Shown in pieces: positions 1-64,000 of a DNA stretch of 64,000 bases (positions within the stretch are counted from its first letter, which is position 1; every line of letters starts with the position of its first letter). Under the pieces are notes generated by a model. The model made no database searches and was not told the DNA's origin. It saw nothing but the letters and a program-made list of their open reading frames with translations. Made by a program: the position numbers and the translations under genes. Origin of the DNA: Asterochloris sp. CNOR1 (taxonomy: Eukaryota; Chlorophyta; Trebouxiophyceae; Trebouxiales; Trebouxiaceae); NCBI GenBank assembly GCA_963969365.1, contig OZ017761.1, forward strand, positions 1,550,001 through 1,614,000, read 5' to 3'.

Positions 1-34
1 CCCGAAGCTACTCAGTCCTGTTGCCCATGTGCAG

Positions 35-3000
35 GGCGCACGGTGTCCAAAGCTGCTGAACAGCAGCAGGACGGCGGGGATGACCTGGACTGGCAGTTCC
101 GGGGTTCAGGGGAGCAGTATCCCATCTCCTTTGTAGACAACCCGCCAACAGAGGCTGAGCTGGAAGAGGTAGGCTTGTTGGCTGCGTGTAAGGGAAGGCA
201 GAAGCAACGCCCAATGCTGAGGGAGACGTCTTCAGGGAAAGAGCTACCCCGTCTTGTGTGTGGACAGCTCGCCAGAGGCTGACCTGCAGGGGAGTCCTCT
301 GGTTGCATATCTGCTCTACAAGGGTGGAGTGGGTTGCTGCCATCTTTGGATGTGAGTGCCTTCTGGGCAATGCTGCGGCTGGCGGGCACACTGACGCCAA
401 GCTGAAAGAGGTGGACTTGCTGGCTCTACGTGGAGCACAGCTGTGTGGGCTTAGCTGCAAGTATAGGCTGAGGCCTGCTCCAGAGGCTGAAGTTGGCATC
501 AGGCAGGAGGAGATAAGGTGCAGCGGCTATGACGCAGATGTGTTGCCTGCACCGCAGGTCAGGGCTGACGCACCTACATGCAGCTGAGTTGTGTGGAGAG
601 TCCTGAGCATGGACTCAGGCCCAAGCGTGCTGCTGCTGCAGGCTGAGGCCGCCATGGAGCAGGAGTTGGAGGAGGTGGGCTTCAAGGGTTACGATGAGGC
701 CGATGTGTGGCCTGAGCGCCCCGAGGACTCTGCACGGCAGCTGGAAGAGGACATGGAGCTGGTCAATGAGCTGTGGGACGAGAAGGGCGAGGGGGAGCCC
801 CTCTCGCAGGAGTAAGGATGTCTGTGTGGATGCATCGGGGCAAGCATTGACGTGGGGACTTCTGTCAATGTGAACCAGCTGACATATTTGTTGGCGGAGC
901 CCAGTGGTGGCCTGGTGGTGTTGGGCCCCAGCTGCTGCTTGTTGGACGCCGACCTGATTAGGCAAACGTGGGACGAGTGGGGAGAGAGGGAGCCTCTCTC
1001 GCAGGAGTGGGTGTGCTTGTGGAGGGGTTGGACTGACTGATGTGGTCAAGATGTGCTGGTTACGTCAGGCGGGTGGCTGCAGTGGGACAGGAGGGGGCCA
1101 GGGCATTCCTCATGCAAGAGAGGGCTGTTAGTGGACCTGTGCTGTGGCTGCAAGGCTGAGGTGCCGGCTCATGGCTGGCAGCATTGGCAGGGCAGCTGCT
1201 GATGTGAGGCGGTAACCTGTGATGGCGCCTGGGCTGCTTAGCTGGGCTTTGAGGCAAGACCCTGCTTCTTCAGGGCTGTTGTGAGCAGCTTGGGGGCAAG
1301 GGCCGCTGTTTGGCCCTGTGAACTGCAGGGACTCGGTTGCCTTACTCTGCTTTGGACGAATCCCAAATCGCCAGCCTTGCAACAGACTGGAGCACAGTGG
1401 ACTGAGCTTAGTGGTGTCTGGGGAAATGCTCAGATTGTGCACACAATCCTGTGTGAGAGCAGAGGTGCTTGCCGGTGGCAGGAATGATGTGCCAAGCTGC
1501 TCTCCCCTCAGGGTATCTGTGACGCTGCAGCCAGCCTGGACAGCCAGCCTGTGCCACAGAAAAAGGTTGTCACGATCTGTACCTGGTTGGCCTGTGGTGG
1601 CCACCTATGCAAACTGTCCTGCCGGAAGCCTCACGATTGCCGCATTTCATAACAACAATCTGCTGCACTGCAGGGATCTGGTTTCCACCTATGTGGTCTG
1701 GTGCAACAACAACTTCCACTGGCCAGGCCTGATCGAAGTGCACCAGGGCTATGGCGGCCTCCCCATGGTGCGCGCCAGCCCACGCAGCATATGCTGCCTG
1801 CTTTGTCCGCTCCTACCTTGCTGTACTGCTGGCCTTTGCATGCGTGGTATGGCAGAGGCTGCTTGATCAGAGGCTAAGAAGCATTGTCCTCAAGGGTGTT
1901 ATGTCTGGAGCCCTTCAGGTTTGCCTGCACAGGTGCTACGGCTGCCCTTCAGCAAACACTGACTCATGCAACATGTTCTGTCGAGGCATGGGCGGCAAGC
2001 TCCTGCGGCTGCTGCCTGTGCTGTGCCGCTGAGCCATCCTGCGGCTGCTTTCCACCTGCTCAGCTGAGATTGGGGGGTTCTTGTGCACTGATCCTGTGGA
2101 CAAGTGACATTGAGAGTGCTGCCGCCTCTGGCCACGTGCTCAGCCCCTGAGGGCTTGTCACGTGTCTTCCCGCATTGTTGGCCTGCAGGTGTGCATGCTG
2201 CACCACCAGAGGGGAGGCTTGTCGTGACTCCTGAGTAGTGGTCCCCTGTGATTGCCCACAGGTGCGCCTGACCCACCCCAAAGGGGATGCGGTGGAGGTT
2301 TACATGCAGGGGGCCACCATCACCTCCTGGAAGCGCAGGAATGGACGGGAGCTACTGCACCTCAGGGACTACAACCCCTTTGACAACTCAGACAGCATCC
2401 AGTGAGCCTGCACAGCAAGCTGCGTCCCACCCAGCCAGCCGCGTGGGGCGCACGCATAGCCAGCTTGACAGCCATGCCCCGCTGATTGGGCTCCCAGCTG
2501 CTGCCCCTCGACAGGCTGCACGACCTTCATGCTACTGTTTGTATGCCTGCAAGTGTGACTGTTCAGAGGGCATTCTCCTGGCAGCCTCCCTCACAACAGC
2601 TCATGCGTCGCCACTTGACCAGCCAAATCTTGAGGCTGTGCTGCAGGGGCTGTACTTTGTCCTCCCACCTTGAAGTGCCTGTGTGCAGTTCGCTGATGCC
2701 CCTGCAGACAGGCAGATCCAGCCTGAGCCTTCCAGCGACCCACTGCCCTGCCCCTGGCTGTGCCCTTAGCATCGCTACCTCCCCAAACACTGCAAAACAC
2801 AATTTTCACATGTGTTTTGCTGCAGGGGCAGCTTTTAGATTGCCTCCCCCACCTTAAAGAAATCTGTCGGAGTTGCCAGAGGGTTGAGTACCTGTGCCCT
2901 TTACCTCAGGCTGCTCACCTGTCTGGCCCTGCTGCAGGGGAGCCTGAGGCGTACCACACTAATGCTCATGTGCACATTCTCTCGTGTAACGATGATGTTG

Positions 3001-6000
3001 AGGTATGGACACTCGATGCATGCAGGGCTGGCACCCACCCCGCTGGCCCCACTCTCAACAAGATATGGGGAGCTGCTCAAGAAGTGGCATGGGGCTTCCC
3101 TGCAGCAGAGCTACGTGGGTCGACGAGGAGTGCCACTACTCTGCCAGCGCTCGCGTGGCAAGAAGTTGTCTCAGCACCATCATGTTGGCATGTTGATCCC
3201 GCTGGCATGCAGGGGTGGCATCCAGATCGCGTTCCCCACCTTCAACAAGTCGCGGGAGCTGCCTCAGCATGGCTTCATGGACAAGATGCAGTGGAGTCTG
3301 GCAGACAGCTCCATAGGGCCCAAGTCGGCGGAGGACCCCGCCCCCCATGTCACCTTTGTGACCCGCAGCAACGAGCAGACGATGAAGCTGTGGCCACACC
3401 AATTTGAGGCCTCCTACTCAGTGAGCTGCCTGGCTTCTGTTGTGGAACAGGCCCGCCAAGAAGCCTGGGCGGCCAAGTGTCTGCTGTCTTTTGTCAAGTG
3501 TACTGCTGGTGGCCGCACATGGCAGCATGATGGCTTGGTATGGTGAGGACCAAGGAATCACAGCAGCCCATGCAATGCAGCATGCATCTCCATCCACCCC
3601 CCTCCGCCCCCCCAAAAGCCAGACCTGCCAGAGTGTGCACGCTGCAGAGCAGCTGAAGGGACCTCTCATGGTACCAGTCATATTGTTTTCTGTCTGGCCG
3701 CCTTGTCCATATGTTGCAGGCCATGCAGGCCACAGTGCGCACAGCGCAACCAGACTGCGCAAGGCCACCTCCAGACTTCTGAACTGCTGCTGCTGGTGGC
3801 TTGTCCTGGCTCTGTCTTTGGCTGATGCCTGTCTTTCTGGGCCACAGGTGCAGCTGATGCAGCCCGATGACCAGAAGGACCCGCGGCCGCCAAACCCTCT
3901 GCCAGAAAAGAGCGGGTCCAAGTCCTTCACAACAAACACAGGTGAGCGCAGTGGCCCGCTGGCAGCACACAGTCGACCCCTGCAAACGTCTTTCCGAGGG
4001 ATGTTTGCTGGGGCCTGAGAGGACTCAACAGCAAGGCTTGCTACGCTGCTCATGTTAAGCCGACTGTGTTCCCTGCAGGATTTGTGATAGATCAGAGCAA
4101 CAAGTCCACCCTGGGGAAGGAGGACACAGACGCGGATGAGGTCATGCAGCTGCTGATAGAGCTGCGCATCAGCAACGATGGTGAGAGCTCTGCAGCTGCC
4201 AGAAACTAGACCCCAAGTGCTTTGATAGGTGCCCTCTGTGAGAGGAGGGTTTGCTGCACAGGCTGATGCATGCTGATGCTGCACCTGCAGCTGCTGCAGC
4301 ACCAGTGATGGTGAGCCTGCTGCTATGTATGAACTGTGCGTTGTGAGTCTGTGCCCAAATGTGCACACAGTCTGTATCTTCCATGATCATGCTGAGATAG
4401 CCCCCTGCCGTTTGTTGGGGGCTGCAGCTTGGCTGCTGATGAGCAAGCAGCCTGTATCCTGTGCATGTCCGTCACTGCGCACAGCAATGCCAACAGGCAC
4501 CTGCCAGCCACGAGTCTGAGTGATTGGCATCAGCAGCAGTGACAGGCATGCTGCTGGCCGCTGCCACCAGGTCGCCCCAGCTTTCTGCAGGTGGCGAGCT
4601 CTTCTCCTGATGACAATGCTGGTCACCCATGGTGCATGGTTGCAACGACCTGCTGCTTGCGCCCTCAGCCTCCATCTGACCAATGGCCTGACCCTGCCCC
4701 TTGCAGGCGAGGAGCCCTTCAGCTTCACAACTGCCCTGCGCCCCCACTTCGCCTGCGATGACCTGAGCCAGCGTCCCGAGTTTGTGCGCATCCTGGGCCT
4801 GGGAGGCAAGTGGACGTACGACTACGAAAACCCCTACCACCCCAAGCTGGGCATGGAGGGGGATGACTACGTCTACTTTGCAGGCATGCCGAGATACCCG
4901 AGAGAACATGTTACAAGAGCTGAAAGGGGGCCTGATCACACCCTTACCACCCCAAGCTGGGCACTGGGAGGGTTGATGTCTAGTGTGCATGAAAGCCTTC
5001 CAACTGTTGGGGGAACAATGGCAGGCATTGCACCTGCCTGCTGTGGAGGCAAGCGCATTGAGAAGCTGTATGTGCACGCGCACACCAGCAAAGCCAGTCA
5101 TGCCTGCTGGATGCAATATATACCGAGTGACTGCACTTATGGATCCAGCAGCCTGTCTCACCCCGGAGCACCCTGCAGGAGCAACACCAACACACTGAGC
5201 AGCCTCTCTTGCCTTGCAGGCAAGCGCATTGACAAGCTGTGGGTGGATGCACACACCAGCGACGTCAAGTTTTGCCCGGGAGACGCCACCCACATGGAGC
5301 TGCTGCTGCGCCATGGCTTTGAAGATGTGGGGGCCTTCAATCAGGGGCTGCTGTACGAGAAGGACGCCGAGTTCGCCAACTTTGTGGTGCTGGCCACCGG
5401 CAGGGTGGCCCGCAAGATCACGTGAGTTGGCGCTCAAACATGTTGGTGTGCACCAAGGTTGCATTGAGCATGTTGTCACATTGGGTCATTGTTGGACAAC
5501 CCTCTGAACCTGCTGGAGGACTGGTCTCCAGAATGTTTCTGATGCTCACATACAGGGACTGCTGTATGAGAAGGTGCTGAGTTTGCATACTTTGAGGTGC
5601 TGGCTGCGGCAGGGTGGCTTGCAAGACCCCGGCAGGAGCTTGGTGCTGCATTCTGGTGGCCATGTGGCATGCTGGCCACTGGCAGCTCAGCCTCCCAGGT
5701 CACATGTGGCAGAAAAAGTCCTCCTGACTCCATGGTTTTTGGCTTGAGCCTACATTGCCGCTTGGCTCTGTGACGTGCTGTGGGACAACTAGCCGGCACA
5801 GGAGGAGATGGCAGGGGAAGTTGCTGTTGCTGATTGTACCTTTGGAAGCCCCTGCAGTCCATGGGCAATAGGGCTGCGCTCGCCCGTCCCACCCTGGCAG
5901 ACTATGTCTACTAACCATTTCCCTGCCTACAGGTTGCTGCCAGGCGAGATGTGGACTGGCCAGGTGGCCTACAGGTCCCACACCAAGTACTGGACCCAGC

Positions 6001-6595
6001 CAGACTTTGACTTTGATGACCTGGACGATGAGGAGGCAGAAAGCCTGTGAGTTCTGGGGAATCGACTACCTGCACGTTGGCTGATGGGCATGGTCGCTTG
6101 GCTTGCCTGCATACAGCTGCTGCAGGCTGTGGCATGGCTGTGTTGTGCTCATGCTGAGGCAGGAAGCATGAGTGTTAGCCGTTGATTGTGTTACGCGGTC
6201 AGGCTTGTGTTCCATTAATGTGCTTGTCATGAGATGACGCATGCTCTAGGCAGGGTGGCGCCTTCAGTGCTTGTACTGACAGCAGCTGGTGTCAGCCGCC
6301 ACGGCTTTGCTGCCTCCTCAAGCGACCTTGGGGACCTCGCAGACTATGCGCTACTGCCTGTGCAAGCCTGTGCCAGGCTGCCGCCTGCATCCATTCATAT
6401 GACACACTTTTTTTGTGTGTGTGCAGTGAGCCCGCTCATGACCGTATGTTTGATGACATTGGACCCCAGATGAGGCCCATGCAACCGCGCAAACACAGTC
6501 AGAAGGAAGAGGAGGACCGACAGAAAAAAGCGCGCAAGGAGACAGAAAAACAGCAACAGCTGACAATAGAACGGAACAGAAGAAGAATGAACTGA
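35..6595 (+). CDS. Aldose 1-epimerase / glucose-6-phosphate 1-epimerase-fold protein, 5' partial
   Basis: Spliced exons 35-168, 642-811, 1674-1767, 2262-2401, 3213-3420, 3848-3941, 4079-4180, 4707-4883, 5220-5421, 5933-6046 and 6427-6595 join in one frame (533 codons seen). The first exon follows an acceptor at 34, so the N-terminus lies upstream. Residues 1-100 are acidic and low in complexity. The mutarotase-like fold starts with GLPMVRLTHPKGDAVEVY and continues through ATITSWKR, GGIQIAFPTF, LPQHGF, KLWPHQFEA and LLPGEMWTG, the same order as glucose-6-phosphate 1-epimerases. The family interconverts alpha and beta hexose-6-phosphates using a His (in PQHGF, kept) and a Glu (in a CVEPG-like strand). 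Here that strand reads FVVLATGRV, so the Glu seems lost. A binding or structural role, as in the plant NDH-complex subunit PnsB2, is possible but not shown. The C-terminus is a charged, Gln/Arg/Lys-rich tail. The intron after 4883 has a GC donor. Convergent with the exchanger gene, 196 bp apart. Confidence 0.8.
3021..3095 (+). repeat. Echo of the acceptor and start of the exon at 3213
   Basis: The stretch from tgcagggctggcaccc onward copies the real junction from 3209 (tgcaggggtggcatcc) at an offset of 188 bp. The copy continues through caacaag and gggagctgc for about 75 bases, so it includes roughly 70 bases of coding sequence, now with substitutions and out of use. Confidence 0.85.
5048..5089 (+). 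repeat. Echo of the exon start at 5220
   Basis: Thirty-six of 42 bases match 5219-5260 (both begin ggcaagcgcattga). The same intron also has a copy of the upstream exon's end (4940-4966 against 4830-4857, sharing ctaccaccccaagctgggca apart from the first base). One intron therefore carries echoes of both its borders. Confidence 0.9.
5554..5630 (+). repeat. Echo of the exon end at 5343-5421
   Basis: The copy begins agggactgctgtatgagaag against aggggctgctgtacgagaag in the exon. It follows the coding sequence for about 75 bases with a small internal deletion and lies 211 bp downstream of the original. Confidence 0.88.
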
Positions 6596-6791
6596 ACCTC
6601 AACAGATGTCTGCAGACCCCCCTTTCCACTCCCATACTAGCAGAATTTGTGTAAGGATATGCTTTCAAGTCATTTGTAAAAACAACAACAACAGCCAAAT
6701 TTTCATCCTCTCATTGATTGGCAGGACATTCTTCAATTATGGTCTGATCAAATGTGGGCCTTGAGGACAAGTCGGTCAGGAGCAAGGTATC

Positions 6792-9700: not shown

Positions 9701-12700
9701 ATGCTTCATTGCAGACATGCAGCCTTGGTGCCATAGTGCTACAGTCTTGGCGCGGGCAGAGCAACTTGGACCAGAAGGAAGCTATGCGCTGCAGAATGCA
9801 GCAAGCGCGCAATGCACAACTTGGAATCACCTGAGAGAAGATGGACACAATGTGCTCCTGGCCGGCCCCAGGCTGCTGCTGAGCTGCGCTGTTGGGGTGC
9901 ACCAAAACAGCAAACTCATCTGCACAGAGAGGGCAATGCTCAGGCCCTGCTGCTTCACTGCATTGGGAAAAAGAGCTTTGAGCAAGAGATCCTGGTATTG
10001 ACTGGGTCATGCGCAGCACACACCTGTCTGCATAGGTGGACCTGTGAGAAGGAAAGCCATCTGTCATAGAGCTGATCAGGCAGTGGTATTGCACAACATT
10101 TCAAGGCCAAGCATTCCAACAAGATCTGCTGGATCGCATCACCAAGTGAGGGAAGTTATACACGTCGCTATGCGACATTCACGCTCAGCATATCATTTAT
10201 CAGGACCTGGTAAGCTGCCTGTGACTGTTACAGGCCGGCCGCAGAGCCTCTGACCGCACATGCAGGCAGACAGGCTAATAATGGCTATCCCTGAAACCCA
10301 CAGATGACTTTTCAGCATCTGCCCGCCCCTCCGAGCACGCAAACCAACACGGACACTGACTCTGGCTGCTCACCTTCACTGTCGTCCCAGTCGTTCCAGC
10401 TGGACTCTGCCTGAGGTGCCTCGGGGTACCCTGCCCTTATACTGTCCCTGTGTAGGTTGGGCGGTCCAGGCAGCCCTGCCAAGCCCTGCTTGACTGACCC
10501 ATCTGCCTGCCCACCTGCAGCGCAGGACGAGCAGAAGTCAGGCAGGCACAGCAGCGACGCAGGATTGTGCGTGTCTAGGGGTTTCTCTGCCCGTGCTCGT
10601 CAGGCAGGCGCCTTCTGCATGCACGTGACTGGAGCGGACATGTCGGTATCCAGCGCCAACGTCTTCCCAGCCTGACAGCAGCAGCTGCTTTCTGTGTAAA
10701 GTCTACCTCCCAAGAACACCACCTGCAGAGTGGCCAGTATAATCCAGCAGCTGCAGGCAGATCCAACACACACCTCTTGCAGTCTGCTCAGTGCACAACC
10801 CCAGCAGACAGTACGAGGCCGCCCCTCAAGCAATCTGCTCAAACAGGTGCCTGCTGCAGGCTACCTCACTGTGCAAGTTCCCCCTACAGACCATGCATGG
10901 CCATCTTAGCGCAACACACCTGCTGCAGGCTGCTCCAGATTGCGTCCCCCAATGACAAGCAACTCCTCCCCAGTGACGTCTTCAGCAGCCTCCTCCCCAT
11001 TAGCGGCACTGCCTGCCTGCCATACCGGGAGCTCAATGCCCTCGGACCTTTTGGAGGGGGCCTGCAGGGGGGCACACAGGAAAGAGCTCAGGCAGTTCCT
11101 CCACTCTTGCAGCGCAGCCTACCAGCCACACAGGGAGGCTCAAGCCCTCAATCTTGTTTGAGGTGCCTGCAGGTACACTACAGGACAGGGCTCAGGGCAA
11201 CACTGCAGCTTCTTCTCGACTCAACGCAGTGCCTGCCTACACTGGCAGCTTCATACCTCCAGGGCTGTCCCACAAATGGGCAAATCATAGCCTCAGTCAT
11301 CAGCCACCATTTCATATGCTCAACCCTGCCATGTTGCCATGGATAGCAAGCAGCAATGCCGTGAGTAGCATGCAGCACTTCTTTGAGTGCAGGTTCCGCT
11401 CCTCGAGGGCTTCTTCACCGGTAAGGGCGCTGCTGTGCAGCAGGAATCTCACAGTGCAGGAGGCCAGCTGCTGACGGCCAGCAATTGCCCCATACCCACT
11501 TCTGAACTTGTCCAAAGCAATACTAACTGCCTGCGTTGCTGAGTTGGCTGGCAAAGTTGCCAGCAAGGCAATCGCTTCAAGTCCTTATGGCAGTTGTTGG
11601 CACTCCCACCTTGAGCAGAACTTTGAAGGCTTGGGATACCTTGGTCGGCGTCAACGACACTTGCGCAGGGGCACTGACACGATTCAGACCATTGCTGCCC
11701 TCTGTCTTGAGAGCATGTCCATGCTGCCTGCCTGTAGCATGCACAAGAGCCAAATGCACCAGGGTCGTTTCAGTGGGAGAGGTTCCAAGGGCTTCTGGTA
11801 TGACGTGATGGCTTGGGCGGGAGGCTTCAAGCATGACATGGCGCCGCAGGGCCTGCCCAGACAGGCTCACGCCTCTGCCACCTTCAATCGCAACATTGCA
11901 GAAGCAGAAGACAGTGCAACACTCAGCAATTTGGTGCACAAACTGGCCCACTAAAAGCACAGAGTGCCGAGGAAGGCACAAAGGGAACTCTCTGTTGGGT
12001 CTCTATCTATGCCATGCACCTGGCATAGCAAAGGCAGCAGGCGTCCTTGCAGGAGCCAGGTAACGGCCTGGACCAACAACCAACAGACTGGGCAGAAAAC
12101 CCTCCTCCCCTCTCCCCGGGGTTGCCATTCAGGTACACATCTGGAGCAGCAAAGGCAGCAGGTGCATTGGCAAGGGTCAAAGAGACACCGGAAGCAGGAA
12201 GTTGACCCAGGACAGACAGGGATGCACCAACCTGAGGCAGAGGAGGCTGCAGGTGCGCTGACAGGTGTGAGGGGGCTGCCAGGCGGCGAGCTGGCAGCTG
12301 CGGAGATCTCGTGAGTCAGGCGCCGTAGGGGCGCCTTGTTGAGGCCAAAGGCAGACTGCCCATGCCCAGGGGCAGGCTTGGGAGGGACAATGCGCCTGCA
12401 GGAGTGACACGAGAGACTGAACAACCCAGCATCATCTCTGAACACAGGCGGTTGACTTTGGCAGGCTGATCTGCAGAGGTGCTGGCCAGAGGGACCCCTC
12501 TGACCCCTCGCATGTGCTGGCCGCCAGCACAACAGGCTGTGCAAGGTGCTCTCAATGGCGGTGCAAACCTGAGAAAGGTCTAACCAGAGCTGCCTTCAGC
12601 AGACAGCTGGCCCGCCCTTCCTTGTGTACATGCTCTCACATGCTAGTATGGCAGGTAATGCAGCCACAACAGTGCTGAAGCCTGCACATAGACTCAGGTG

Positions 12701-15700
12701 CTGGTGTAGCAGGCAGACCATGTAGCAGAGGGTGCACATGAGCTCACGTGCTAGTGTAGCAGGCAATGACCACATAGCCGATGTAGAGCAGCACCAGCAC
12801 CAAGCTCTCTGCCAGACTCAGCCACCCGTCCCACAGGAAGGCCAGCACCAGGCAGCTGGCCCCAATGTAGGCTGTGATGTCGCGCACAAAGGCAACCTGC
12901 AGGGCAGGGACTGGGTGCTTGACCGCATGCGAGGCAGCCTTCAGAAAGGTGATGTTGCGCACAAAGTCATTCAGCGGGCCAGGAGGGGTTTGGAAGGACA
13001 TGACAGGCGCAGCATGAGCAAGCCTGGAAGTTAGCAGGGGCTTATGCGCAGTCAAGGTCGACAGATGTCTGCCCCTGAGCAACAGAGCTCACACCTCAAT
13101 TCTGCACAGATTCCTGTAGGAATGCCACAGCAAATGAGGCGCAGCATAGAGGAAGCCGGCGCAGGGGTGCAGAGACAGGTGTTTGCAGCTCCATGTACCA
13201 CATCATGACCCAGAGCAGCGTCAGCAGCAGAGTGGCATCAGTAGAGTGGCAGCTGCAGTGTGGCAGCTAGCAAGCGAGGCTGCACAGAGAGGACACTGAA
13301 GCCTGGCACACCTTGTCAGAGATCTGAATGGACCCCAGCAGAAGGATGGCGGCGGTCATGATGCAGGCAATGAACAGGCCACTGCCCAGGGTGGAGGCCA
13401 CTGCCAGTCCCAGGTCAACATGGCCGCCTGCAAGGCACCAGAGAAGCCGATGAGTCCATGCCTTTGCCTGCAGTTCACAACAATCCTGGCTGCAAGAAGG
13501 GCACAGAGAATGTTTCCCTCAAAGGGAGGGCACAGACACTCCTTGAAGGCTCTCCCCTGGGCACCTGGCAGCAGGTGCTCGAACGCTGCCCTTGGTAGCC
13601 TGGTACGCGGGGAACACACATCAGTTGGGCTGCTAATTGGATGCTATCCCTTAGCTCAGCCTTCCCTGAGGGACTAAAATCCAGGACGGCTGCCAGGCTA
13701 AGTGCCCTGGTGGCATGAAGAGGCTGTCCACATGAAGCAGCATGTCAGATTGCCTCCTGCATGCCGAGCTGCTTGAGCAGGCTGCGCGGTCTCACACCCC
13801 AGCAGACTCATGCATGGGTCAGGCAGACACGAGGTCACCCTGTTAAATACCACACCAAGCAGCAGGGCAGCTCACCTGCTGTGATGGCGGCCAGCTGTGT
13901 GAAGAGGTCAGGGGACCCGCCCGCAAAAGACAGGAGGGTCACGCCGGCCACTGCTGGTGGGAGCTTCAGGACTATTGAGATCCACTGCAGGCAGGCAAGG
14001 CAGAACTCGAAGGTGATACGATGTCGCAGTCTTCAGCCTGCTGTACCTCAAGGGCAGCCCCTGTACCCTGCTGGTGGCAGCTGGGGACCAGGTCACTCCA
14101 CAGCCGGCAGGTGAGCATCACGGAGGTGAGCAGGTGGCAGGCGAGCTTGAGTGACATGCAAGACCGTCACAGGCGTGGGGCAAGCTGGTACGCATGCAGC
14201 CTGCCAGGCACTTTGTGGTCACAGTACCTTGGGACTGCACAGGCAGGACTGCTAGCCAGCCTCTCCCCCCAGGGTGCAAGCAACAAGAGTGTGAGTACAA
14301 CAGCTGCTCGACAGCCAGCCTGACCTCGAATTGAGGCGCAAAGAGCCAACTGCCAGCTTTAGGGTGCCTGGAGTGGCACCAGCCTTGCAGACAGCAAGGG
14401 AATGTCAACCCTTCACGACCATAGCCCTGACCAGGTTCGCAAGCCCGCCTCACCTCGACAGACGGCACCAGAAAGCCCTCTGCCACCTCTGACAGCGCAT
14501 AGAACAGCACCAGCATCCACGCAAGGTACAGGGGCATCATCAGCCACTTGATGTGGCCACCGCCTGCGCAGTAGTAGCTGGGCAGGTAGGAGAGGTAGTG
14601 GTCCTCTGCATGGCAGGCCTCGTTGCCCGTCACATACTCACACCTGCAGTGACAGCATGCCACCAGAGCTTAAGGTGCGAGGGTGCAAGGGCGCAGCGCT
14701 CTGCTGGGCAGGTCTGGTTGCCTGTCGACCTCAGGCACCCACAGTGGCAAACATGCAGCTGAAAGTATGCGGTGCAGGCACGTTAGCGCCTGATACTGAC
14801 TGCACTCGCAAGCAGCCAGCATGCAGGAGCGGGCAACTGGAGCCATTGCCTGCCGTGCAGCACATGAAGTAGACGGAAGGAGAGTGCATCTAATCGCTGC
14901 CTTGTTGTTCCATTTTGGGCCGCGCTGCACCATGAATGCCTGAGTCAGGAGCACCAGCCCAACATGGCCCCTGTGCCTGGAGGGATGCAGACTCACACAT
15001 CGCCCTCTGCAGCATCCAAGTTGCAATCCCCCTCCTCCTCCTCGTCCTCCTCCTCCTCATCTGCCTCCTGCTCAGGCTCTGCCTCCCCAGCGACCACCTC
15101 TGCAGCCAAATGTGTGGGTGTTCTCAGAGATTCCAGCAGCACCTTCAGAGATCTCCTCAGCAGCACCTCCAGCCTCTGCAGTGGCAGTGGCGTGCGCATC
15201 AGCAGTGCCCCCAACCATAGGAGCCAAATCCACATGTGCTGGGCGGACTCAATGACTGGCCAGCAGCCAGCGCCGGGGGCTGCTGCTGCAGCCCATCATG
15301 CGTGAGGAGGCAGGTGTCGGCAGCCACAGTGAGAGGACTCAGGCAAGCTTTGGCAGAGGTGCTGGACAAAACGTCTGCATACAGATTTGTGATGCTGAAT
15401 GCCCTTGCCAAAAGCGATTGCCGAACCCCTCCGCCTGGGGCTGCCAGTGCGTCTGCTGGACTGAGCTGTGGCGCAGTGTTCTCAAGATGTGCACTTTGCT
15501 CAGTAATTTCAGTCCATTCACGGCAGCATGGGTTGACCACACCTAGCCATGATCTGCTGCTTCTGCAGCAGCTTCCAACTGTGCACCCAGTGCCTCACCT
15601 GCAGCGTCTGCAGCCCCGCCCTGCTCTGTCTCATCAGACTGGTCACCCTCGTTCCCCTGGGTATCTGCCACCTTGGTGCCTTCAGCTGTCACGCCCCCAG

Positions 15701-31839: not shown

Positions 31840-36516
<4,677 letters not shown>

Positions 36517-46399: not shown

Positions 46400-49031
46400 A
46401 TGCCTGGAAGCACAGAAGACTCTGAGAATGGAACCCCACCCATTCTGAGAGCTGTATGTGCTGGTGATTTGGAAGGTTTGGAGGTAGGCTGTGCTGGTCT
46501 GCCTGCATCCAGTGCCAGTTTTGAGGGCCTGACAGGGCTGCAGGATGCATTGACGGCAGGAGACGACATTGAGCAGCCAGCAGCCAGCGGCGCAACCGCC
46601 TTGTAAGCTGTTGCTTTCCAGATGTGTCAATTTTTGCCTTGGCTGCTTCTCCTCCTTGAGGCGTCTGCATCGCAGAGCCCGGGGGCCCCCCTCTCACAGA
46701 CCTGAAGCTACGGCTGCAACTGCAGGGTCCTGGCAGCAGCGAGGGGTCACACACTTCTGGTGAAACGGCTGCTGGAGGCTGGAGCAAGTACAGAAGCGCG
46801 CACCAAGTGAAGGCTAGCACACCTGGCTTTGCAGGCTGAAAGTATGTCGAGCCATGCATTGCTGAGCGCTCATTCACTTCAACACCTGCCTGCAGAACAG
46901 GTGACACTGCCCTGCACTGGGCCGCCTTCCATGGGCATGCAGAGGCTGCTCAGCAGCTGCTGCAGTCAGGAGCCAAAGCGGTGAGTGGCACTCTTTATCA
47001 CCATGGTGGCTTTGCACGGCTTCATTCTGCGAGCTGTTGGCAACAGGCCACAGATGGGATGTGGCAAGTCAGCTTTGGACTGCTTTCGATACCGTTGACC
47101 AGCATTCTGGGTGTGGTATCCCGCCTGTCATGTGTGCCCTGCTGGATGCAACTGTGCCCCTGCTGTCCTGCCATCACTGGGGTGCAGCATTGCTGCCCAG
47201 GTGTTTCAGCTGAGCAGAGTCCTGCTGGCTGAGCTGCTCACATCCTGCAATGCTGGTGTCCAGATGGCGCACTCTGCCCCTGCCTGCTTAGCCCTGCTGC
47301 CTCCTTGACAGCAAACAGCCAGCTGAAGACAAGTCCTGCCATGATGTGCTGCTGGAGGAGTCACTGTGTCTTGTGCTCAGTGTCAGTGGCATGTTGGAGA
47401 TTTGCTGCAGGATGCTGTGGGGGACTTGCAGAACAGGCCCATCCATCTGGCAGCTGCTGCAGGGCACACCCAGGTGGTGAAATTGCTGCTGAGGCATGGC
47501 GCTGCACCGGTAAGATGTCATGTCACGAACATCCTGGCTTATCAAGGCAATGCATCAGTGCGAGAGGTTGTTTGTCCAGTGCTTGCGGTCTGTTCTTTGC
47601 ATTGATCAGTGCTGCTGTGCAGAGCGCCACAGCAGGTATGGTTAAAACGGAAGGCACCAGCATTGCAGCCCAACGCCCTTTACAAGGACAGCCGCTGACA
47701 GGAGTTGCCTGGTCTCAAGTGGCAGCCCTGCAGCTGCACAGGAGGCAAATTGCAATACAGCATCTACCACTTGATGTGTATCACCAGACAGCCTCCACGT
47801 GCAGCCTTGCTTGCTGGGGTGCATCAGCCAAGAGCAACCTGGGTTGATGTATTCTGCAATGAGCCCTGCCCCTGCAGGTGTGCCGCAACCTGTACGGCAA
47901 CACGCCGGCCAAGCTGAGCGCCCAGCAGCCAGACTGCCGGGAAGCGCTGAGCGCCATTCAGATTGGGGGCCTGCCTGCACGCACCAAGCTGGCGGAGGAC
48001 CTGCAGGCGGCCGCAGCAGAGGTGGAGGGGCGGCGCCTGGAGGAACACCTCAAAGCAGAGGAGCTGTAAGCGGCTGTGCACTGCCTCACAAAATGCGGTG
48101 TGTTGACATGGGAATGGTATGGGTTATGAGTGGGTGCTGGAACTCATCTGCGTGCTGCCTGCTTCTGGCAGCTGCAGCAGAGACTGAGGGGCGGTGTGCA
48201 GAGGACCTTTTAAGTGCTGAGGAGCTGTGAAGTGGCTATGCACTGACTCACAGAAGGCAGCAATTTGACACGAGAATTGAGATGTAGTGCCCGCCTGCAG
48301 GGAGAAGCAGCAGCAGACCACCCGCACAGCAGTGCAGGATCGCCGTGCAGCAGAGGACGCAGAAGAGGACAGGGCCGAGGAGGAAATGCTGGCCAAGCTG
48401 GCCAGTGAGCAGGAGGCAGTCAGGAAGGCAGAGGCAGACAGGCTGAAGGTGAGGGTCCCCAAGCGCTTTCGGCCTCTCAAAATGAGGGAATGTGGGCTGC
48501 GAGGGGTTGGTGTAGTACACTTGGGGGGCCCAGCGTTGCTGTCTCAGGTCTGGAGCTAGGGCTGAAGGCAGTCAAGAAGGCGGAGGAGGACAGGCTCAGG
48601 GTAGAGACCATGTGCTTGTACAAAGGCTGTAGAGACGCTGAGTTTGCATGCCCAGGGGCAAAGGCCATTCAGGGGGTCGAAGAGGTAGTTTGCAAGTGGT
48701 AGAGTACTTATTGCTGTCAAGCAGCTTGCCTGCCATCGGGTGGTACACACCCTGCAGAATTACATGCAGGTGTGACAGAGACCTGTCACAAGGTGAACAG
48801 CCAGGTCAGGGAGAGGCCTGGCCTGCAACACAGTGCAATTGACTCCACAGGGTGGAGAGCTGATTGCAGCCTTGCAGCACCAGAACCACTGAAGCCAGTC
48901 TGGTGGTCACAAAAAGGCTTTTGCCGCAGGCTGAAGAAGAGGCCAAGCTGAAGGCCGAAGAGGAGGCTTGGCTGGCCAAGGCTGCAGCCAAGAAGGCTGC
49001 TGCAGCTGCCAAAGCGAAATTGAAGAAGTGA
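46400..49031 (+). CDS. Ankyrin-repeat protein with C-terminal charged helix
   Basis: Eight exons (46400-46483, 46544-46602, 46726-46806, 46896-46980, 47411-47509, 47878-48065, 48301-48448, 48930-49031) give 281 residues with every phase matching. Residues 10-140 form three to four ankyrin repeats, seen as ARGHTLLVKRLLEAGA, GDTALHWAAFHGHAEAA and PIHLAAAAGHTQVVKLLL. From about 175 onward the chain is a long Glu/Lys/Ala helix, likely coiled coil, ending in an Ala/Lys-rich segment. This is a protein-binding scaffold with no enzymatic motif; partner and location are unknown. Two of its introns contain clear copies of the end of the preceding exon. Divergent from the PDH gene: 271 bp between start codons. 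Confidence 0.88.
48166..48290 (+). repeat. Echo of the ankyrin-gene exon end at 48065, with intron sequence
   Basis: gcagctgcagcagagactga to gctgaggagctgtgaag copies gcggccgcagcagaggtgga to gcagaggagctgtaagc (48005-48070). The match continues into the intron (ggctatgcactgactcacag against ggctgtgcactgcctcacaa). The duplicated unit is therefore a block crossing the donor, 160 bp long from start to start. Confidence 0.92.
48557..48612 (+). repeat. Echo of the ankyrin-gene exon end at 48448
   Basis: aaggcagtcaagaaggcgga then ggacaggctcagggtagaga copies gaggcagtcaggaaggcaga then agacaggctgaaggtgaggg (48414-48455). Coding sequence, donor and early intron are all present. Confidence 0.9.
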
Positions 49032-52300: not shown

Positions 52301-55300
52301 TAGGTCATAGTCTTGGTGCGCTGCTGGTCAGAGACTTTGATGAGCTCCTGCACTGTCTGCAGGCGGGCAGCCAGGTGGTCAAACACAAGCCTTCCCAGCT
52401 TGCATCCCCAAGACAATCTACTGGGGCTGAAGAGCCACATGAACGGCACATCCACAAACCCACTTGAACATCTGCAACCTCAATAAGCAGAAAGAGCAGC
52501 TCTCAGAGAGTCACTGGCGCCACCACCTGTGGCATGATCAGAAGCGCCGCCAGCCACGTTGCAGCCTGTTCCCGCAGCACACACAGTCCGCCAGGGCCGT
52601 GCATGGGAATGCACCACCTGTTCATGCGCAAGCACCCTGCCCTCCACCCTTCAACCTCACTTCCAGGAAGCGGTGCAGCTCAAATCTGTCAATGGTGATG
52701 TATCATACAAGTGTTCCCCACAGGCACCCAACCTGGCCTGACTGCTCTTTTGCCCCGGCCCTGATCAACCGGGTGCTCAACTGCAGCACAGCCCCACATG
52801 ATGCTTGAGAGCCTTGCCTGTAGCAATCAAAGCGGGTGGCAGCTCCTGGAGAAGGGCCAGCCAGCCCTTGGGCTCCTTGAAACGTGGCAGGCAGATATCA
52901 GCTTAAGTGATGTCACCTGGTCCCAATGGCAACGGCCACGACACCCCAACCTGTTCATTTGCAGCCCTTGCCTTCAGGTCACACTGCCTGTGCACAAAAG
53001 CATGGGGCCTTGCCTGCAGGAAGCGGTGCAGGTGCGAGCTGCGGGCGATGATTTTGTCTGGGAAGGCCTCCACCAGATCTTCAATGGCCTCGTGGCTGAA
53101 GCCCTTGAGGTCCTCCATGAGCCTGGGCGGGTACCGCTTTCGCAGCACAGACATGATGTCTTCCTCAAAGCCCTACACAACAAGCAGGTAATTGTGACAC
53201 TGAAGAAGCTGATTGCTGTTGGGACCATGAGGCCTGTCTGCTTCCAAGGAGCCGAGCACGGCATCAAAGAACCTGGTTTGGCGCTACTCTAGGCCTGCAT
53301 AACCATGAGACAGCCTTGCTGAGCACCCAGGATACCTACTCGATCTCCTGTCCAAGTGCTAGACCATGACAGCAAGCTTTGACACCGCTTGCTGACTTTC
53401 AGCTGGAAGACCCTGATGAGACATCGAGTGCAGGACCCACACTGCAGCTGTGCATCGGCAGCCACACAGGCTCTACACGGCCGGCAGGCCCCGCACCTGC
53501 TGGGTGCCTGTGATCTCAGGCAGTGCCTGCTGTGCAAACATGCACAAGCTGCCAAGCAGATGGTGGCAGGCTATGCTGCCAGCCTGGCCTGTGATCGTCC
53601 TGTGCAGTGCGCACAATGCAGCTTTGTAGACGCTGCCATGCATGCTCAGGCAGGCAAGTGACCTGCTGGATGTCACGATGAGGGGCCACAGCACATGTGC
53701 AGGCTCCAGATTGCATGTTCTGCCAGGCAGCCTCACCTGCTGAAATGTGACATGCAGGGCCCACAGAACACGCGCCAGTTTCCGCACAGCTGTAGCCAGG
53801 TCGGCCATCTCCTTCTTGGGCAGCTCCCACCTGCGCAACAGAGAGGGCAACAGTGCAGGTTGAGCCACACAAAACAAACAGGTGATATGCAAGCAGCACA
53901 GGGTGTGCAGGGGTGGGGTTTCTGCAGTTGATGAGGGAACAGTTGGATGACAGGCGGCAGGCATGAGCTGTGCAGCCAATCACAGCGCAGAAGACACAGG
54001 CTGCACAGCAGAATGCAGTGGTCCAATGACCTGTCTGTGCAGCACTGCTTTGCGGCAGCTTGATCATAACCCTATGTCACTGCAGGTGCTGGAGCCTGCT
54101 TCCCATGAGCATGCAGCAGGGCTATGCTGCAGCGCCACAACATGCACGGTGCTGCGGTGCATCTGTGGCCCTTCATGCACCACAGCATGCCTGCTGCATG
54201 AAGGCCAGAGATGCACCGCAGCACCGTGGCCCCACACGAAGACTGAGTCCCATACTAAAAATGCCCCGCAGGTTACGCCAGAGCCCCACAGCAAACTAAG
54301 CAGTGCCACAGCTTGCCTGCTGCACTCACGGCACTGCTTGTGCTGGATGCCCCCCGACTTGTATCCCCACAGGCCTCAATGGCAATGCAGCTCATCTGTC
54401 GCACTTAACGTAGCGCGGCGCAAAGCAAGAGCATTCATATTTTGTGTTCTGATAAAGACACAACTCACCTGCTGCACTAGATGAATGAGACGCCCAGGGC
54501 AAAGCACCAAACCCCCCCTTGCAGTGCACTTCTAGACCCATCTCACTTGCTGCACTGCAGATATGAGATGCCTGGGACAAAGCACCACCGCCCGCGTATT
54601 GTCGCAATGTAGTTCTCGTTCTCTGAGAGGGGCATGTACTCCTGCGACTTGTTCAGCTTGTTGTAAACATCCATCAGGACCTGCACAGCATAATAGAAGA
54701 GCCTCTCTGACATGTCAAAAAATGGTCAGGGCACTGGCATGCTTGTCCTGTCAGCACCGCTGTAAATGTTTCACAGTCAGTATGGCACAGCAGGCGCATC
54801 ACTGTCTTTCTGCAGATGGTTTGCGCACATTGCTTGGGGCCATTGCATGAGGCCACTGCAATGCCGCTGCTGCGCAGGGCAGGCAGAGCCACACAGCACC
54901 AGACGGCTGCACAGTGGACACCGGCTTCCAGGGATTTGCTGGCAGACGTGAACACACCTTCTCGCACTCAGCCTCCCGGCTCTCCACCTGCTCCCTGTAC
55001 CACTCCCGGTCGCTCTGATCGTTGTCCTTGGACTGGATGCGCTGATACCCTGTCCCCCGCCCCAGGCTCCTGCAGAAATAGCAGGCCGCTGTCTTGAGGC
55101 TGCCCGCAAAAATTGACTGTGCAGAGTAGACAAGTGCTGGACCCCTGTACCCCATCGCTGCCTCCTGCACGCATGGCCCAAAGCCTTGTGAGAGCGCCCA
55201 GCTCGGGGCAGCACACCATAACCTTAACCTCCGGGGCAGTCCTCTGGCCAAACCCCTGTGATGCTGTACTGGGTTTGGCAGTAGCGACACGCTTACTCCA

Positions 55301-57567
55301 GCCTGTGCTGAGGTACAGGGTTGAGCCGGCGCAGCAGTTATGGGCCACCTGACCCCAGCAAAGCAGATGTCATCACTCTGGCAACTCAGATGCACACATC
55401 TGGCAGTTCTCTACTGATGCCCTGTGCAGCACCTCCCAAGCACTCTACAGTGTGCAGTACCCTGCAAGCCATGTATGCCAAAAGGACTCACGAATTCTCC
55501 TCCATGGATCGCCGACTGCCCACGTCGCGGTTCCAGGCCAGTTCGCTCAAGTCAGCCAGAGCGCACAGGGCAGCAGCCATGTTGTCAGTGGCCTGCACCG
55601 ACAGCACCTGACACTTTCAGCCCAGGCTACCGCATTGCTGCGCAGCTAATGCAGAGGCATGCCGCCATGTAGGGTGGCATAGCAATGTGCTGCAGGGCCT
55701 GCACCATGCTGCAGCATGCGAGCAAGAAGCCAACAATGCAAGGCCGAAGAACATGTGGGCACAACATGCACCACACCGCTGCCACTGTGTGGGTCGTACA
55801 CATGCAGGTGAGGCCTGCCTGATGAGAAGCGCTTTTGGGGAAGATGATGACACTCATGATCAGGGAGAGGAAGACGCCCAGCACGATGCCTGAGATTCGG
55901 GTGACAGCCACCAGGGCAGCATCTGCAGACAATAAAGAGGCGAACTAGTGGCAGCTTGTTCAGGGACTGACGAAAAATCTCTGAATGGCAGGTGGCAATC
56001 GCCTCCAGAATGGATGCCTGGCACGATGCCACAGGTGCGCGTGAGAGCCACCAGGGCTCTGCTGCGGGCAGGAGCTGCAAAGGTGGTAGGCGGCAAGGCA
56101 GACAGCAGCAGGAGAGCGATTGCTTGTCGCGACTCAGCACAGTGCCTGAGGTGCATTGGCAGCCACCAGGGCGTGCCTGCACGCAGCAGCAGTTCATGCG
56201 CCAAGGGGTTAGCTGCTAAGGAAACCTGAACAGTCCTATGACAGCCACCAGCGCTGCGTCTGCAAGCAGCGCCAGCAGAGGGCCAGAGGCTGCGGGGGAC
56301 AGCCAACAGAGCTGTGTCAGCAGGCACAGACCCTATTGGGTGGTGGCAGCAGCCCTGTGTGGTTTGCATGCACATAAGCGCACCACAATGTCAGTACACA
56401 GCAGGTCCCAGCGGCGGGGGCCGCAGCATAACGCCCTCTGCAATGCTCCCTGCAGCGGTGCTACAGTGAGGAAGTGCACAGGAGCCTGTCACAGATAGCA
56501 AAGCATCGCCTGTCTCACACATAACATCCTGGGTGCCGAAGTCAGCAGCGAATTGACTGCCTGCGCAGACATTGCCCATTCCCAGACTGGCCTTGTCAGC
56601 AGCATGGCCACCTGCGCAGGTGCTACCCGTTGCCAAATTGCACACGAGACGTGCTCAAGGACCCCACCTGCACCCGTCTGCGCCCCCATGACCACCAGCA
56701 CAAAGGTCAGCACAAACAGCTTGGCGGAGTAGTCCAGGCCCAGAAACCAGCCCCCAGCTGCGGCAACAAAGCCCACGAGGCCAGCCGAGACCGAAGCCAA
56801 GACTATGTCGGGCAGCTGGGGGATGCGGCTGCCCACTGACACCACCAGCAGTCCCAGCAGTCCACCTGCGTGGCAGCAGGGAGGGTGACGGGGATGGCAT
56901 TTGTGCTAAGCTAGACATGTCACGCCAGGAAAGCCATAGCGCAAGATGTGTCAGGGACATTGAGGTGGAGGCCACTGCATCCAGGCAATGCGGCCCCACA
57001 GAAGCCTGCAGCAGCAAGCAGTGCCAGGGTGGAGGGTGGCGTGCCACCTGCTCATGCGGACTAGCCACGATCTGGCCGAGCAGCGAACCTGAGACGGTTC
57101 CCAGGGTGCGCTCTAGGGAAACCTGAGCCACTTTGCCCAGCACGGGAGCCGTGACCACGACGCATGTGATGGCGGCCCACTTGCAGCCCTGGAGCCACTG
57201 GTTTGCAGCACGGGGATGCAGGCCTGCAGCACAGCAAGCACAGTGTGCAATTGTATCAGGAGTGCAGGGCAAGCACTCAGGGCACTATGCAAGCTTGTGC
57301 ATTTTGTCAGATGCAATGCATCATGATGGGATGTAGTATGCTGGATCTACACGAAACAAGAGTTAACTGGATCTGCAGCATTACCTGATATCTCATCAAT
57401 GAAGAGGTAACCTATACATACCTGTAGCAGCATGGTGTTTGTGATCAGCAGGAGGCAACTTGTACAGGCCGTTAGCGACACACACCTACCGCCAAAGCAA
57501 CTCCAAGTCCCTGCCTCAGCCCTCTCCTGATATAGTCTGGCACCACAGTGCGCTTACGTAGAGTCAT
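49336..57567 (-). CDS. ALMT/FUSC-superfamily membrane protein
   Basis: Seventeen exons, read right to left: 57490-57567, 57385-57421, 57089-57223, 56674-56865, 55819-55922, 55492-55592, 54958-55069, 54547-54680, 53737-53830, 53014-53172, 52280-52356, 51903-51985, 51024-51293, 50521-50678, 50039-50140, 49563-49595 and 49336-49443. Together 658 residues, all phases consistent. The N-terminal third holds about six hydrophobic segments, including GCKWAAITCVVVTAPVLG, ERTLGTVSGGLLG, FVLTFVLVVMG and a last helix ending VIIFP. The layout of a helix ending in FP followed by a long cytosolic part is that of plant aluminium-activated malate transporters, anion channels related to bacterial FUSC exporters. 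The cytosolic part has a WELPKKEM segment at the ALMT W-x-P position, a helical domain (about 330-430), a Ser/Pro/Gly-rich linker and a short helix at the end. Substrate unknown. Two introns have GC donors (after 55819 and after 53014). Confidence 0.75.
56018..56325 (-). repeat. Four echoes of the ALMT-like exon border at 55922
   Basis: The + strand text gacagccaccagggcagcat then ctgcag (55900-55928) recurs as gagagccaccagggctctgc (about 56042), ggcagccaccagggcgtgcc (about 56157), gacagccaccagcgctgcgt (about 56239) and gacagccaacagagctgtgt (about 56298). The first also keeps the upstream cacgatgcc, the exon part of the real border. Confidence 0.9.
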
Positions 57568-57658
57568 CAGGCGGGCCGGAAGCTCAGCAGAAATTGAAAG
57601 AAGCAGGTCTCTTCTTAGGTTTTCATCAGTCAAATTTAGTGAACACTTCAGGCTTCAC
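57568..57658. promoter_or_regulatory. Very short bidirectional 5' interval
   Basis: Only 91 bp separate the proposed start codons of the ALMT-like gene (-) and the lipase gene (+). Both transcripts must start inside this interval or inside each other's first exon. If the lipase instead started at the in-frame ATG 57548, its coding region would overlap exon 1 of the other gene by 20 bp. No TATA box is apparent. Confidence 0.5.
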
Positions 57659-63108: not shown

Positions 63109-63498
63109 CCCAGCTGTGGCTTCGCCGCGCAGGCGTCCCCCCTTGAGCTGCTGTGCCTCCTGTTTCATTATGACCCCTCATGTACTTCGCATTTGCACAT
63201 AATGGCAAGGATTGCAGATACTTGTCATCCTCAGCTGCTTGAATATGGTTTTGCCCTCCCTTATCGCTTTTTATGAACATGCTTGACTGAACGCCTGGAG
63301 CCTTTTGAACCCCCTGCAACAGCTTTATTCGCAATCCAAATCTCTGCCAGCATATATCAGGGCAAATTGCAAGGTTCAGAGTAAAGAGCCGAGGCACACA
63401 GGTCACTTAAATATGTTGTCAAGCTTCAGGAGGAGGGAGGTTTGGTGCCCAGCGCACACCGCAGATCTTTGGGTTGGGCTGGGCCTCGCCTGTCCTGT
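63109..63498. other. Convergent 3' gap after the lipase gene
   Basis: About 390 bp without a convincing coding frame, presumably the 3' UTRs of the lipase gene and of the minus-strand gene on the right. It is more A/T-rich than its surroundings, as expected for 3' UTRs. Confidence 0.45.
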
Positions 63499-64000
63499 TC
63501 ATTGTTGCCTCGGCAGCTGCCAAAGGTCAATGGGAGTGTTGGACCGCACATTCAGCAGCACTCCTCCACTGTCCTGGTATGCTGCCAGGATGTTCTGGCT
63601 CCAGGTGGCCATCTGTAAGCAAGTCCACAGCGTGAAACAGCTTGCCCCAGGCCGTGACTGGCCCTGAAATGCGTGCAGGAAAACGTACAAAGACAGGCAG
63701 CTTGCAAGCAACAGGCAGGCTCACTGCTCCTGGGAGCACACAATGGGCATACCTGGCATATTGACCAAGCTGCCTCACCAGCCCACATCGTCGAATTGCT
63801 TGCCCTGAGCAATTGGCTGGCTCAGCTGCCCATAGGTGCATGTGCAGCCAATGCGCGACAGAGTTGACAACTTCACGCACGAGCTGCCACAACAGGCACC
63901 CCCCTAACGGGGAGGTTGCCACTGATGGGGAGCCTCGCTGCGCCCCACTGCAGCCCAGGCAGACTGAGACATGATCAGATGTGGGCTCACCGTGGTGTTG
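63499..64000 (-). CDS. 3' part of an unidentified minus-strand gene, running off the window
   Basis: The right edge reads, on the minus strand, as an exon end followed by gtgagccc at about 63991, then intron, then an acceptor ctgcag near 63945. Two readings of the rest compete. One is an uninterrupted frame 63527-63922 ending in VQHSH. The other is a spliced last exon at about 63499-63612 after an acceptor at cttacag, ending in PIDLWQLPRQQ with AAYQDSGGVLLNVRSNTP upstream. The second looks more protein-like, but I could not find a phase-matched exon before it. I recognise no family in either. Confidence 0.35.

What the first reader, a model, noticed from the sequence alone, without database searches (positions are those of the whole stretch)
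1..64000. Introns are filled with decayed copies of their own exon borders
In genes A, B, C, G, H, I, J, K and L I find direct-orientation copies of splice junctions plus 20-80 bases of neighbouring exon, lying inside the adjacent intron 70-250 bp from the original. They come from both donor and acceptor sides, are 70-90 per cent identical by eye, and carry frameshifts and stops. The usual reading, chance similarity or alternative exons, does not fit: copies often cross the border and include intron bases. A recurrent tandem-duplication process acting at exon-intron borders, with only one copy kept in use, would explain both long introns and the extreme uniformity of acceptors. Tandem duplication containing AGGT is a known proposed route of intron gain; here it looks chronic and genome-wide. 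I know of no named description of this pattern, but I cannot search.
Basis: partly seen in the sequence, partly recalled or inferred. Interest (0 to 1): 0.88.

Follow-up and report, generated by a model that had tools for sequence, protein, structure and literature searches.

The report
Decayed tandem duplications lengthening algal introns
In what looks like a lichen green alga, about one intron in six carries a recognisable worn-out second copy of a stretch of DNA, usually the edge of the neighbouring exon, left by an old tandem duplication; the pattern is real, but untargeted duplication plus natural selection can explain most of it.

Summary
In the 64-kb window plus 18 other 10-kb stretches of the same genome (244 kb), blastn finds 129 direct repeat pairs at offsets 30-500 against 2 inverted. 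Introns match their own flanking exons at score >=32 in 43 of 941 comparisons; swapped exons give 0.1. The copies are decayed tandem duplications: 46 of 49 copied borders lie where tandem geometry requires, acceptor copies upstream, donor copies downstream. Differences by codon position (0.161/0.153/0.247) fit a neutral copy beside a constrained exon, which argues against alternative exons. Affected introns exceed the others by about one repeat length.

The interpretation needs changing. A simulation of untargeted duplication, purifying selection and decay can give the observed shortage of non-coding-only pairs, so border targeting is not needed, though no single setting fits every statistic. 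It rejects a constant rate: 18-20% young full-length copies expected, 1 of 129 found. An older wave, now quiet, fits better. No general intron-gain signature appeared. Copied acceptors are kept slightly better than the simulation gives. No RNA, related genome or other eukaryote was available for comparison.

The parts
968..1023 (+). intronic copy of donor border 811 (source 773-830, 81.0%)
3018..3076 (+). upstream copy of the exon-start region 3205-3262 (76.3%); my model calls it exon, rightly or wrongly
   Evidence: class BE
4940..4997 (+). downstream copy of exon part 4830-4890 (75.4%); my model extends the exon into it
   Evidence: class BE
5044..5089 (+). intronic copy of acceptor border 5219 (source 5215-5260, 84.8%)
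5553..5626 (+). intronic copy of exon end 5342-5417 (81.6%), with two single-base gaps
11097..11196 (-). intronic copy of acceptor border 11061 (source 10991-11092, 73.1%); alignment 104 at offset 106, i.e. head to tail
12624..12660 (-). intronic copy of donor border 12747 (source 12732-12768, 81.1%)
12949..12983 (-). intronic copy of acceptor border 12896 (source 12874-12908, 80.0%)
17229..17452 (-). three serial copies (17229-17295, 17347-17382, 17411-17452) of acceptor border 17121 (source 17092-17158)
20018..20066 (+). intronic copy of donor border 19829 (source 19795-19845, 84.3%), cation-efflux transporter gene
   Evidence: domain
33663..33706 (+). intronic copy of donor border 33505 (source 33474-33517, 82.2%), glutamate dehydrogenase gene
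   Evidence: gene checked
34984..35037 (+). intronic copy of donor border 34933 (source 34884-34939, 78.6%), glutamate dehydrogenase gene
   Evidence: gene checked
37760..37833 (+). intronic copy of donor border 37668 (source 37609-37683, 72.0%)
43275..43300 (-). intronic copy of exon part 43369-43394 (96.2% over 26 bp), pyruvate dehydrogenase E1-beta gene
   Evidence: gene checked
43619..43671 (-). upstream copy of acceptor border 43499 (source 43452-43504, 81.1%); my model calls an 18-bp exon inside it, probably falsely
44849..44913 (-). intronic copy of acceptor border 44798 (source 44752-44816, 80.0%)
48167..48277 (+). intronic copy of donor border 48065 (source 48006-48115, 72.1%), ankyrin-repeat gene
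   Evidence: domain
48566..48602 (+). intronic copy of donor border 48448 (source 48414-48450, 83.8%)
54456..54509 (-). copy of exon edge 54534-54587 (80.4%, offset 78)
   Evidence: class BB
56013..56326 (-). serial copies (56013-56057, 56135-56172, 56239-56264, 56298-56326) of exon edge 55873-55927

Best explanation
Small tandem duplications, mostly 60-300 bp with a mode near 80-120 bp, arose all over this genome without regard to gene structure. Where both ends of the duplicated unit fell in coding sequence the event disrupted the protein and was lost. Where at least one end lay in an intron, splicing could keep the original copy in use and leave the extra copy inside the intron. That makes donor copies lie downstream and acceptor copies upstream, and lengthens the intron by one unit. 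The extra copy then decayed neutrally. Copies of exons stay recognisable longest because the original is held still by selection, while copies of intron-only DNA diverge on both sides; this makes the survivors look centred on exon borders. Most events are old (ages around 0.15-0.3 neutral substitutions per site in the settings that fit best), so the process was more active in the past. Shown here: tandem geometry, neutral decay, shortage of young copies; the length addition agrees. Inferred: the untargeted origin (sufficient, not proven) and the molecular cause, most likely end-joining of staggered breaks after fill-in synthesis.
For: Direct versus inverted 129:2. Of 5 pairs at least 60 bp long and at least 85% identical, 3 fill 0.95 or more of their offset: L013 68-bp unit x3 at 96.2%, L008 121 bp at offset 119, L003 62 at 65; the others are the second-neighbour match of the same L013 array and L019 at 0.60. 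Similarity continues beyond the detected match on the same diagonal (8.44 versus 7.92 of 20, p=8e-6; local score 13.20 versus 12.38, p=0.003; 207 flanks). Side rule 46 of 49 borders, 40 of 43 after collapsing clusters. Codon-position differences 0.161/0.153/0.247 lie between two old-age simulations, 0.144/0.139/0.222 and 0.186/0.181/0.282. Affected introns median 364, minus the largest repeat offset 189.5, unaffected 194.5. Untargeted simulation with ages 0.15-0.3 and longer indels: non-coding-only 0.22/0.15/0.09, identity 10/50/90 percentiles 0.73/0.81/0.91, young 0.001; observed 0.26/0.18/0.09, 0.72/0.80/0.91, 0.008.
Against: The same run gives 0.37 of pairs at score >=50 (observed 0.25), exon-only 0.40 (observed 24 of 129, 0.19) and border-crossing 0.38 (observed 71 of 129, 0.55); a second old-age setting fits that split (0.24 and 0.53) but gives lower identities (0.69/0.76/0.85) and 0.49 at score >=50. 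Copied acceptor positions -5 to -1 match in 117 of 125 cells, 94 of 102 with one row per border, against 0.875 and 0.846 in two old-age simulations; donors show no excess (0.837 against 0.883 and 0.844). The intron half was the more similar half in 22 of 30 pairs, about half expected. The size distribution has a trough at 40-60 bp that plain slippage would not predict. The age fit is a comparison of 18 grid settings by eye.
Confidence: 0.72

Rival explanations
1. One reading: a duplication process that acts specifically at exon-intron borders and is still running.
For: Border-plus-non-coding pairs are 47 of 129 against 27.9 by random relocation; exon-exon pairs 1 against 9.3. Non-coding-only pairs are 3 of 32 at score >=50 against 0.38 under constant-rate untargeted models. 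Border-crossing matches exceed the setting that fits identities best (0.55 against 0.38).
Against: The deficit of non-coding pairs follows from old age without targeting. Non-coding-only tandem pairs do exist, 33 of 129. Young full-length copies are 1 of 129.
Confidence: 0.12
2. Local copy-and-paste by template switching during repair, so that the copy need not be strictly tandem.
For: Most detected matches cover only part of the offset (median length/offset 0.20-0.49 by identity class), as a short pasted piece would.
Against: Three of the five long, less decayed pairs fill the offset, similarity continues past the match ends, introns grow by about the offset, and inverted pastes are almost absent.
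Confidence: 0.1
3. The copies are functional alternative or mutually exclusive exons or splice sites.
For: Copied acceptors are kept slightly better than simulated neutral copies.
Against: Differences at codon positions 1 and 2 are as frequent as a neutral copy predicts; 20 of 46 carry a frameshifting gap; only 2 pairs appear in both the donor and the acceptor list, the rest hold one border.
Confidence: 0.04
4. Chance similarity or composition (repeated words such as CTGCAG).
For: The acceptor word TGCAG is nearly uniform here, which helps short matches.
Against: Swapped-exon, reverse-complement, inverted-repeat and shuffled controls give near zero.
Confidence: 0.01

Closest known systems
Small tandem duplications from double-strand-break repair (PMC8355091, passages read; the rice study of Vaughn and Bennetzen 2014 seen only as a reference there)
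   Same: Head-to-tail units; that paper states they are the most common short (<100 bp) insertions in the human genome and, in mouse and human cells, links them to breaks with 3' overhangs, fill-in by Pol alpha-primase and end joining.
   Different: Here units are mostly 60-300 bp, old, and seen through their effect on splice borders; the repair pathway was not tested in this alga.
Intron gain by tandem genomic duplication of AGGT (PMC3443670, passages read; PMC4974935, search listing only)
   Same: Tandem duplication plus splicing choice leaves the protein intact.
   Different: These events lengthen existing introns; the in-register signature of a new intron was not above control as a whole. 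One array in L013 is a possible exception.
Tandem exon duplication and mutually exclusive exons (PMC6071210, search listing only; otherwise recalled)
   Same: A second exon copy lies beside the first.
   Different: Here copies are mostly partial, contain one border, and decay neutrally.
Introners (PMC9860276, search listing only; otherwise recalled)
   Same: A genome-wide process that changes intron content.
   Different: Introners are dispersed copies of one element; these copies resemble their own neighbouring exon and not exons of other loci.

Membership tests
Small tandem duplication | direct orientation, head to tail | tested here: met
   129 direct to 2 inverted; 3 of 5 long, less decayed pairs abut; residual similarity along the diagonal
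Small tandem duplication | made by break repair (Ku80, CST, Pol alpha-primase) | not testable with these tools
   needs genetics or fresh junctions; almost all junctions here are too old to read
Intron gain by AGGT tandem duplication | intron start resembles downstream exon start and intron end resembles upstream exon end, in register | tested here: not met
   >=14 of 24 matches: 0 of 433 (0.23 expected) and 1 of 432 (0.4 expected); that one intron reaches >=16 (0.0 expected) and was not looked at
Mutually exclusive or alternative exons | copy keeps reading frame and protein constraint | tested here: not met
   codon positions 1 and 2 differ at 0.161 and 0.153, third 0.247, as neutral simulations give; 21 of 46 broken
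Mutually exclusive or alternative exons | copy is spliced into some mRNA | not testable with these tools
   no RNA data held
   excess under constant-rate ages; with old ages the non-coding-only share fits, and the border share fits one setting (0.53) and not another (0.38) against 0.55

The most novel reading that the evidence does not exclude
A past burst of roughly 100-bp tandem duplications swept this alga's genome and supplied a large share of its present intron DNA. Dividing the 84 clusters or 129 pairs by a simulated detection of about 0.25-0.29, with a mean unit near 170 bp, would give very roughly 30-50% of non-coding DNA (my arithmetic). Some of the duplicated acceptors have been kept by selection or use, giving ready-made second splice sites. 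I lowered the probability from 0.25 after weakened the acceptor evidence.
Probability: 0.2. Interest if true: 0.75.

Novelty: new variant of a known kind. Interest (0 to 1): 0.5.

Why it matters
It turns intron lengthening, often ascribed to mobile elements, into something that can be read and dated event by event, because the exon preserves the reference copy. It also gives a simple filter rule, that an event survives if one end is non-coding, which predicts which copy stays in use. It warns gene annotators: my own gene finder seems to have put false exons into some decayed copies. If the age shift is right, a mutation process rose and fell in one lineage.

Tried and rejected
Chance, composition and inverted repeats: rejected. 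A dispersed element family: rejected, since exons of other loci give no matches. Intron creation by AGGT duplication as the general process: not seen. Constant-rate duplication: rejected by the shortage of young copies and of non-coding pairs. My first reading of the simulation (identity spectrum alone) was that a constant rate fitted; the later statistics overturned it. My reading that copied borders are kept far better than neutral rested on a simulation with ages 0-0.6; rerun with old ages most of the gap closed. Repeat-directed C-to-T mutation as a cause of fast divergence: the exon-to-copy spectrum shows G>A 0.102, A>G 0.103, C>T 0.082, with no one-sided excess. The zero count of blastn pairs at offsets 20-50 I take as a culling artefact of blastn (recalled); the diagonal scan covers that range and still shows few at 40-60. 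Desiccation damage as the source of breaks in a lichen alga: one paper search gave no paper that I judged from the listing to be on the point, left as a guess. Papers: ten searches, several with capped listings, showed among the listed titles and abstract starts none describing this pattern in green algae. Passages seen do not mention it: PMC6652019 (12 of 19 places), PMC3446292 (7 of 7), PMC12636532 (11 of 11). That is a claim about those searches and passages only.

Dropped before counts: L001 (overlaps the window) was left out of all genome statistics; pairs at offsets outside 30-500 or below score 32 were left out of the 129; in the codon-position, side-rule and splice-site counts only classes BN and EN (71 pairs) were used, the 24 BB and BE pairs, the 1 EE and the 33 NN being left out; exon ends shorter than 20 bp were left out.

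Full report
What the window is. It lies at G000:C16:1550001-1614000 of a 56.38-Mb assembly in 21 contigs. Eighteen contigs are chromosome-sized (2.0-4.5 Mb); C19 has 43,319 and C20 110,056 bases, which leaves 215,390 for C21 (sum). The published lichen alga Asterochloris glomerata has a 56-Mb genome, 98% of it at 56-62% GC, a chloroplast genome of 217,546 bp and a mitochondrial genome printed as '11,0932', which I read as 110,932 (PMC6652019, passages). I infer an Asterochloris species; the name was not tested. G+C in the window is 55-62% in 2-kb steps.

Gene models. No annotation was available, so I wrote and self-trained a small gene-finding hidden Markov model on the window and the 18 fetched stretches: 51 gene models, with 515 introns flanked by predicted exons on both sides. 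Window models were checked against Pfam: 5 of 6 queries gave families (ribosomal L5 family, cation efflux, transketolase domains, ankyrin, and one fused model with glutamate dehydrogenase, RRM, zinc finger and thioredoxin; a single exon gave none), 4 of 4 (aldose epimerase, Na/Ca exchanger, ALMT/FUSC, class 3 lipase). Two were checked against solved structures: pyruvate dehydrogenase E1 beta, E 4.9e-71, and glutamate dehydrogenase, E 4.8e-135 and nearly gapless. Models fuse some neighbouring genes and seem at times to call decayed copies exons. The acceptor is almost always TGCAG (T 0.91, G 0.94, C 0.99), though training began from a GCAG hint, so this is partly circular.

The observation. Self-comparison of the window shows direct repeats almost only at short distance. 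Over 244 kb there are 129 direct and 2 inverted pairs at score >=32 and offset 30-500, forming 84 clusters, 12 of them with three or more pairs.

What it is. Three results point to tandem duplication. First, among five pairs at least 60 bp long and 85% identical, three fill their offset: L013 (68-bp unit, three copies, 96.2%), L008 (121 bp at offset 119), L003 (62 at 65). Second, similarity continues outside the detected match on the same diagonal. Third, the side rule: a duplicated acceptor can stay harmless only if the copy is upstream, a donor only if it is downstream. 25 of 26 acceptor crossings and 21 of 23 donor crossings obey; one exception involves a 27-bp exon in L003, one a multi-copy array in L017, one a doubtful 11-bp exon in the window. 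In the window 16 of 17 crossings obey.

What became of the copies. Against the exon in use, differences are 0.161 and 0.153 at first and second codon positions and 0.247 at third. A copy free of constraint adds equally to all three; the exon adds mainly silent changes. Two old-age neutral simulations bracket these values. So the copies behave as neutral. 20 of 46 carry a frameshifting gap and 4 an in-frame stop. Introns with a copy have median length 364 (88 introns); subtracting the largest repeat offset gives 189.5, against 194.5 for the other 450. Longer introns are also larger targets, so part of this is expected anyway, but the match is what growth by one unit predicts.

Is it aimed at borders? 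Compared with random relocation of the same pairs, border-plus-non-coding pairs are in excess (47 versus 27.9), as are pairs with both copies on borders (18 versus 7.1); exon-exon pairs are nearly absent (1 versus 9.3) and non-coding pairs fewer (33 versus 47.6). I simulated untargeted duplication with loss only when both ends are coding, then decay with constrained exons and neutral copies. With ages uniform from zero, 38-42% of detected pairs should be non-coding only and 18-20% young and full length; observed 25.6% and 0.8%. With ages 0.15-0.3 and frequent longer indels the simulation gives 22%, 15% and 9% non-coding at scores 32, 40 and 50 against 26%, 18% and 9%, nearly the same identity percentiles and almost no young copies, but too many exon-only (0.40 against 0.19) and too few border-crossing matches (0.38 against 0.55). 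With ages 0.2-0.3 and fewer, shorter indels the split is 0.24 and 0.53 with 24%, 15% and 10% non-coding, but identities are too low. So untargeted duplication seen through conserved exons is enough for the main bias, while some preference for borders is not excluded. Any steady process, with or without loss of fresh duplicates, would leave at least as many young copies as old ones per unit of time (inference). The shortage of young ones therefore means a higher rate in the past, or a clock that runs fast at first, or collapse of fresh duplicates in assembly; the last two were not tested, except that no one-sided mutation spectrum was seen.

What does not fit. Copied acceptor positions -5 to -1 match in 117 of 125 cells, 94 of 102 with one row for each of 21 borders, against 0.875 and 0.846 in old-age simulations; donors show no excess. 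In 22 of 30 pairs the intron half is the more similar half, where old-age simulations give about half and the earlier one, with ages 0-0.6, about a third; over all columns the halves are equal (0.815 and 0.813), as simulated. The size trough at 40-60 bp and mode at 80-120 bp lack an explanation.

Mechanism. The best-supported chain is: staggered break or similar lesion, fill-in and end joining giving a head-to-tail unit (shown in mouse and human cells and hinted for plants, PMC8355091 passages; inferred here); filter by splicing and selection (supported by the side rule and the near lack of exon-exon pairs); neutral decay in the intron (shown).

Limits. 244 kb is 0.43% of the genome and the 18 stretches all begin at base 500,001 of their contigs, not at random places. 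Gene models are my own. No relatives, RNA or other eukaryote genomes could be compared, so I cannot say whether the density is unusual among algae.

Noticed in passing
window 54145-54228: An 84-bp imperfect palindrome (88%, score 106) inside an intron of the model that carries the ALMT/FUSC domain; a hairpin or the remains of a small inverted-repeat element. A weaker one lies at 20774-20819.
   Followed up: no
L013 545-748: A 68-bp unit in three copies at 96%, each holding a candidate acceptor and an AG|GT; splicing from the first AG|GT to the third would remove about 136 bp, not a multiple of three.
   Followed up: partly
L012 6184-6987: A larger tandem duplication, about 400 bp, 81% identical, head to tail.
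   Followed up: no
L013 8386-10000: A long open frame that looks like a reverse transcriptase by eye; no family search was run on it.
   Followed up: no
window and fetched stretches, predicted introns: Acceptors are almost uniformly TGCAG and the first exon base is G in 65%; training started from a GCAG hint, so this needs RNA evidence.
   Followed up: partly
G000 contigs C20 and C21: Contig sizes (110,056, and 215,390 by subtraction) match the organelle genome sizes printed for Asterochloris glomerata within about 1%, suggesting the genus.
   Followed up: partly
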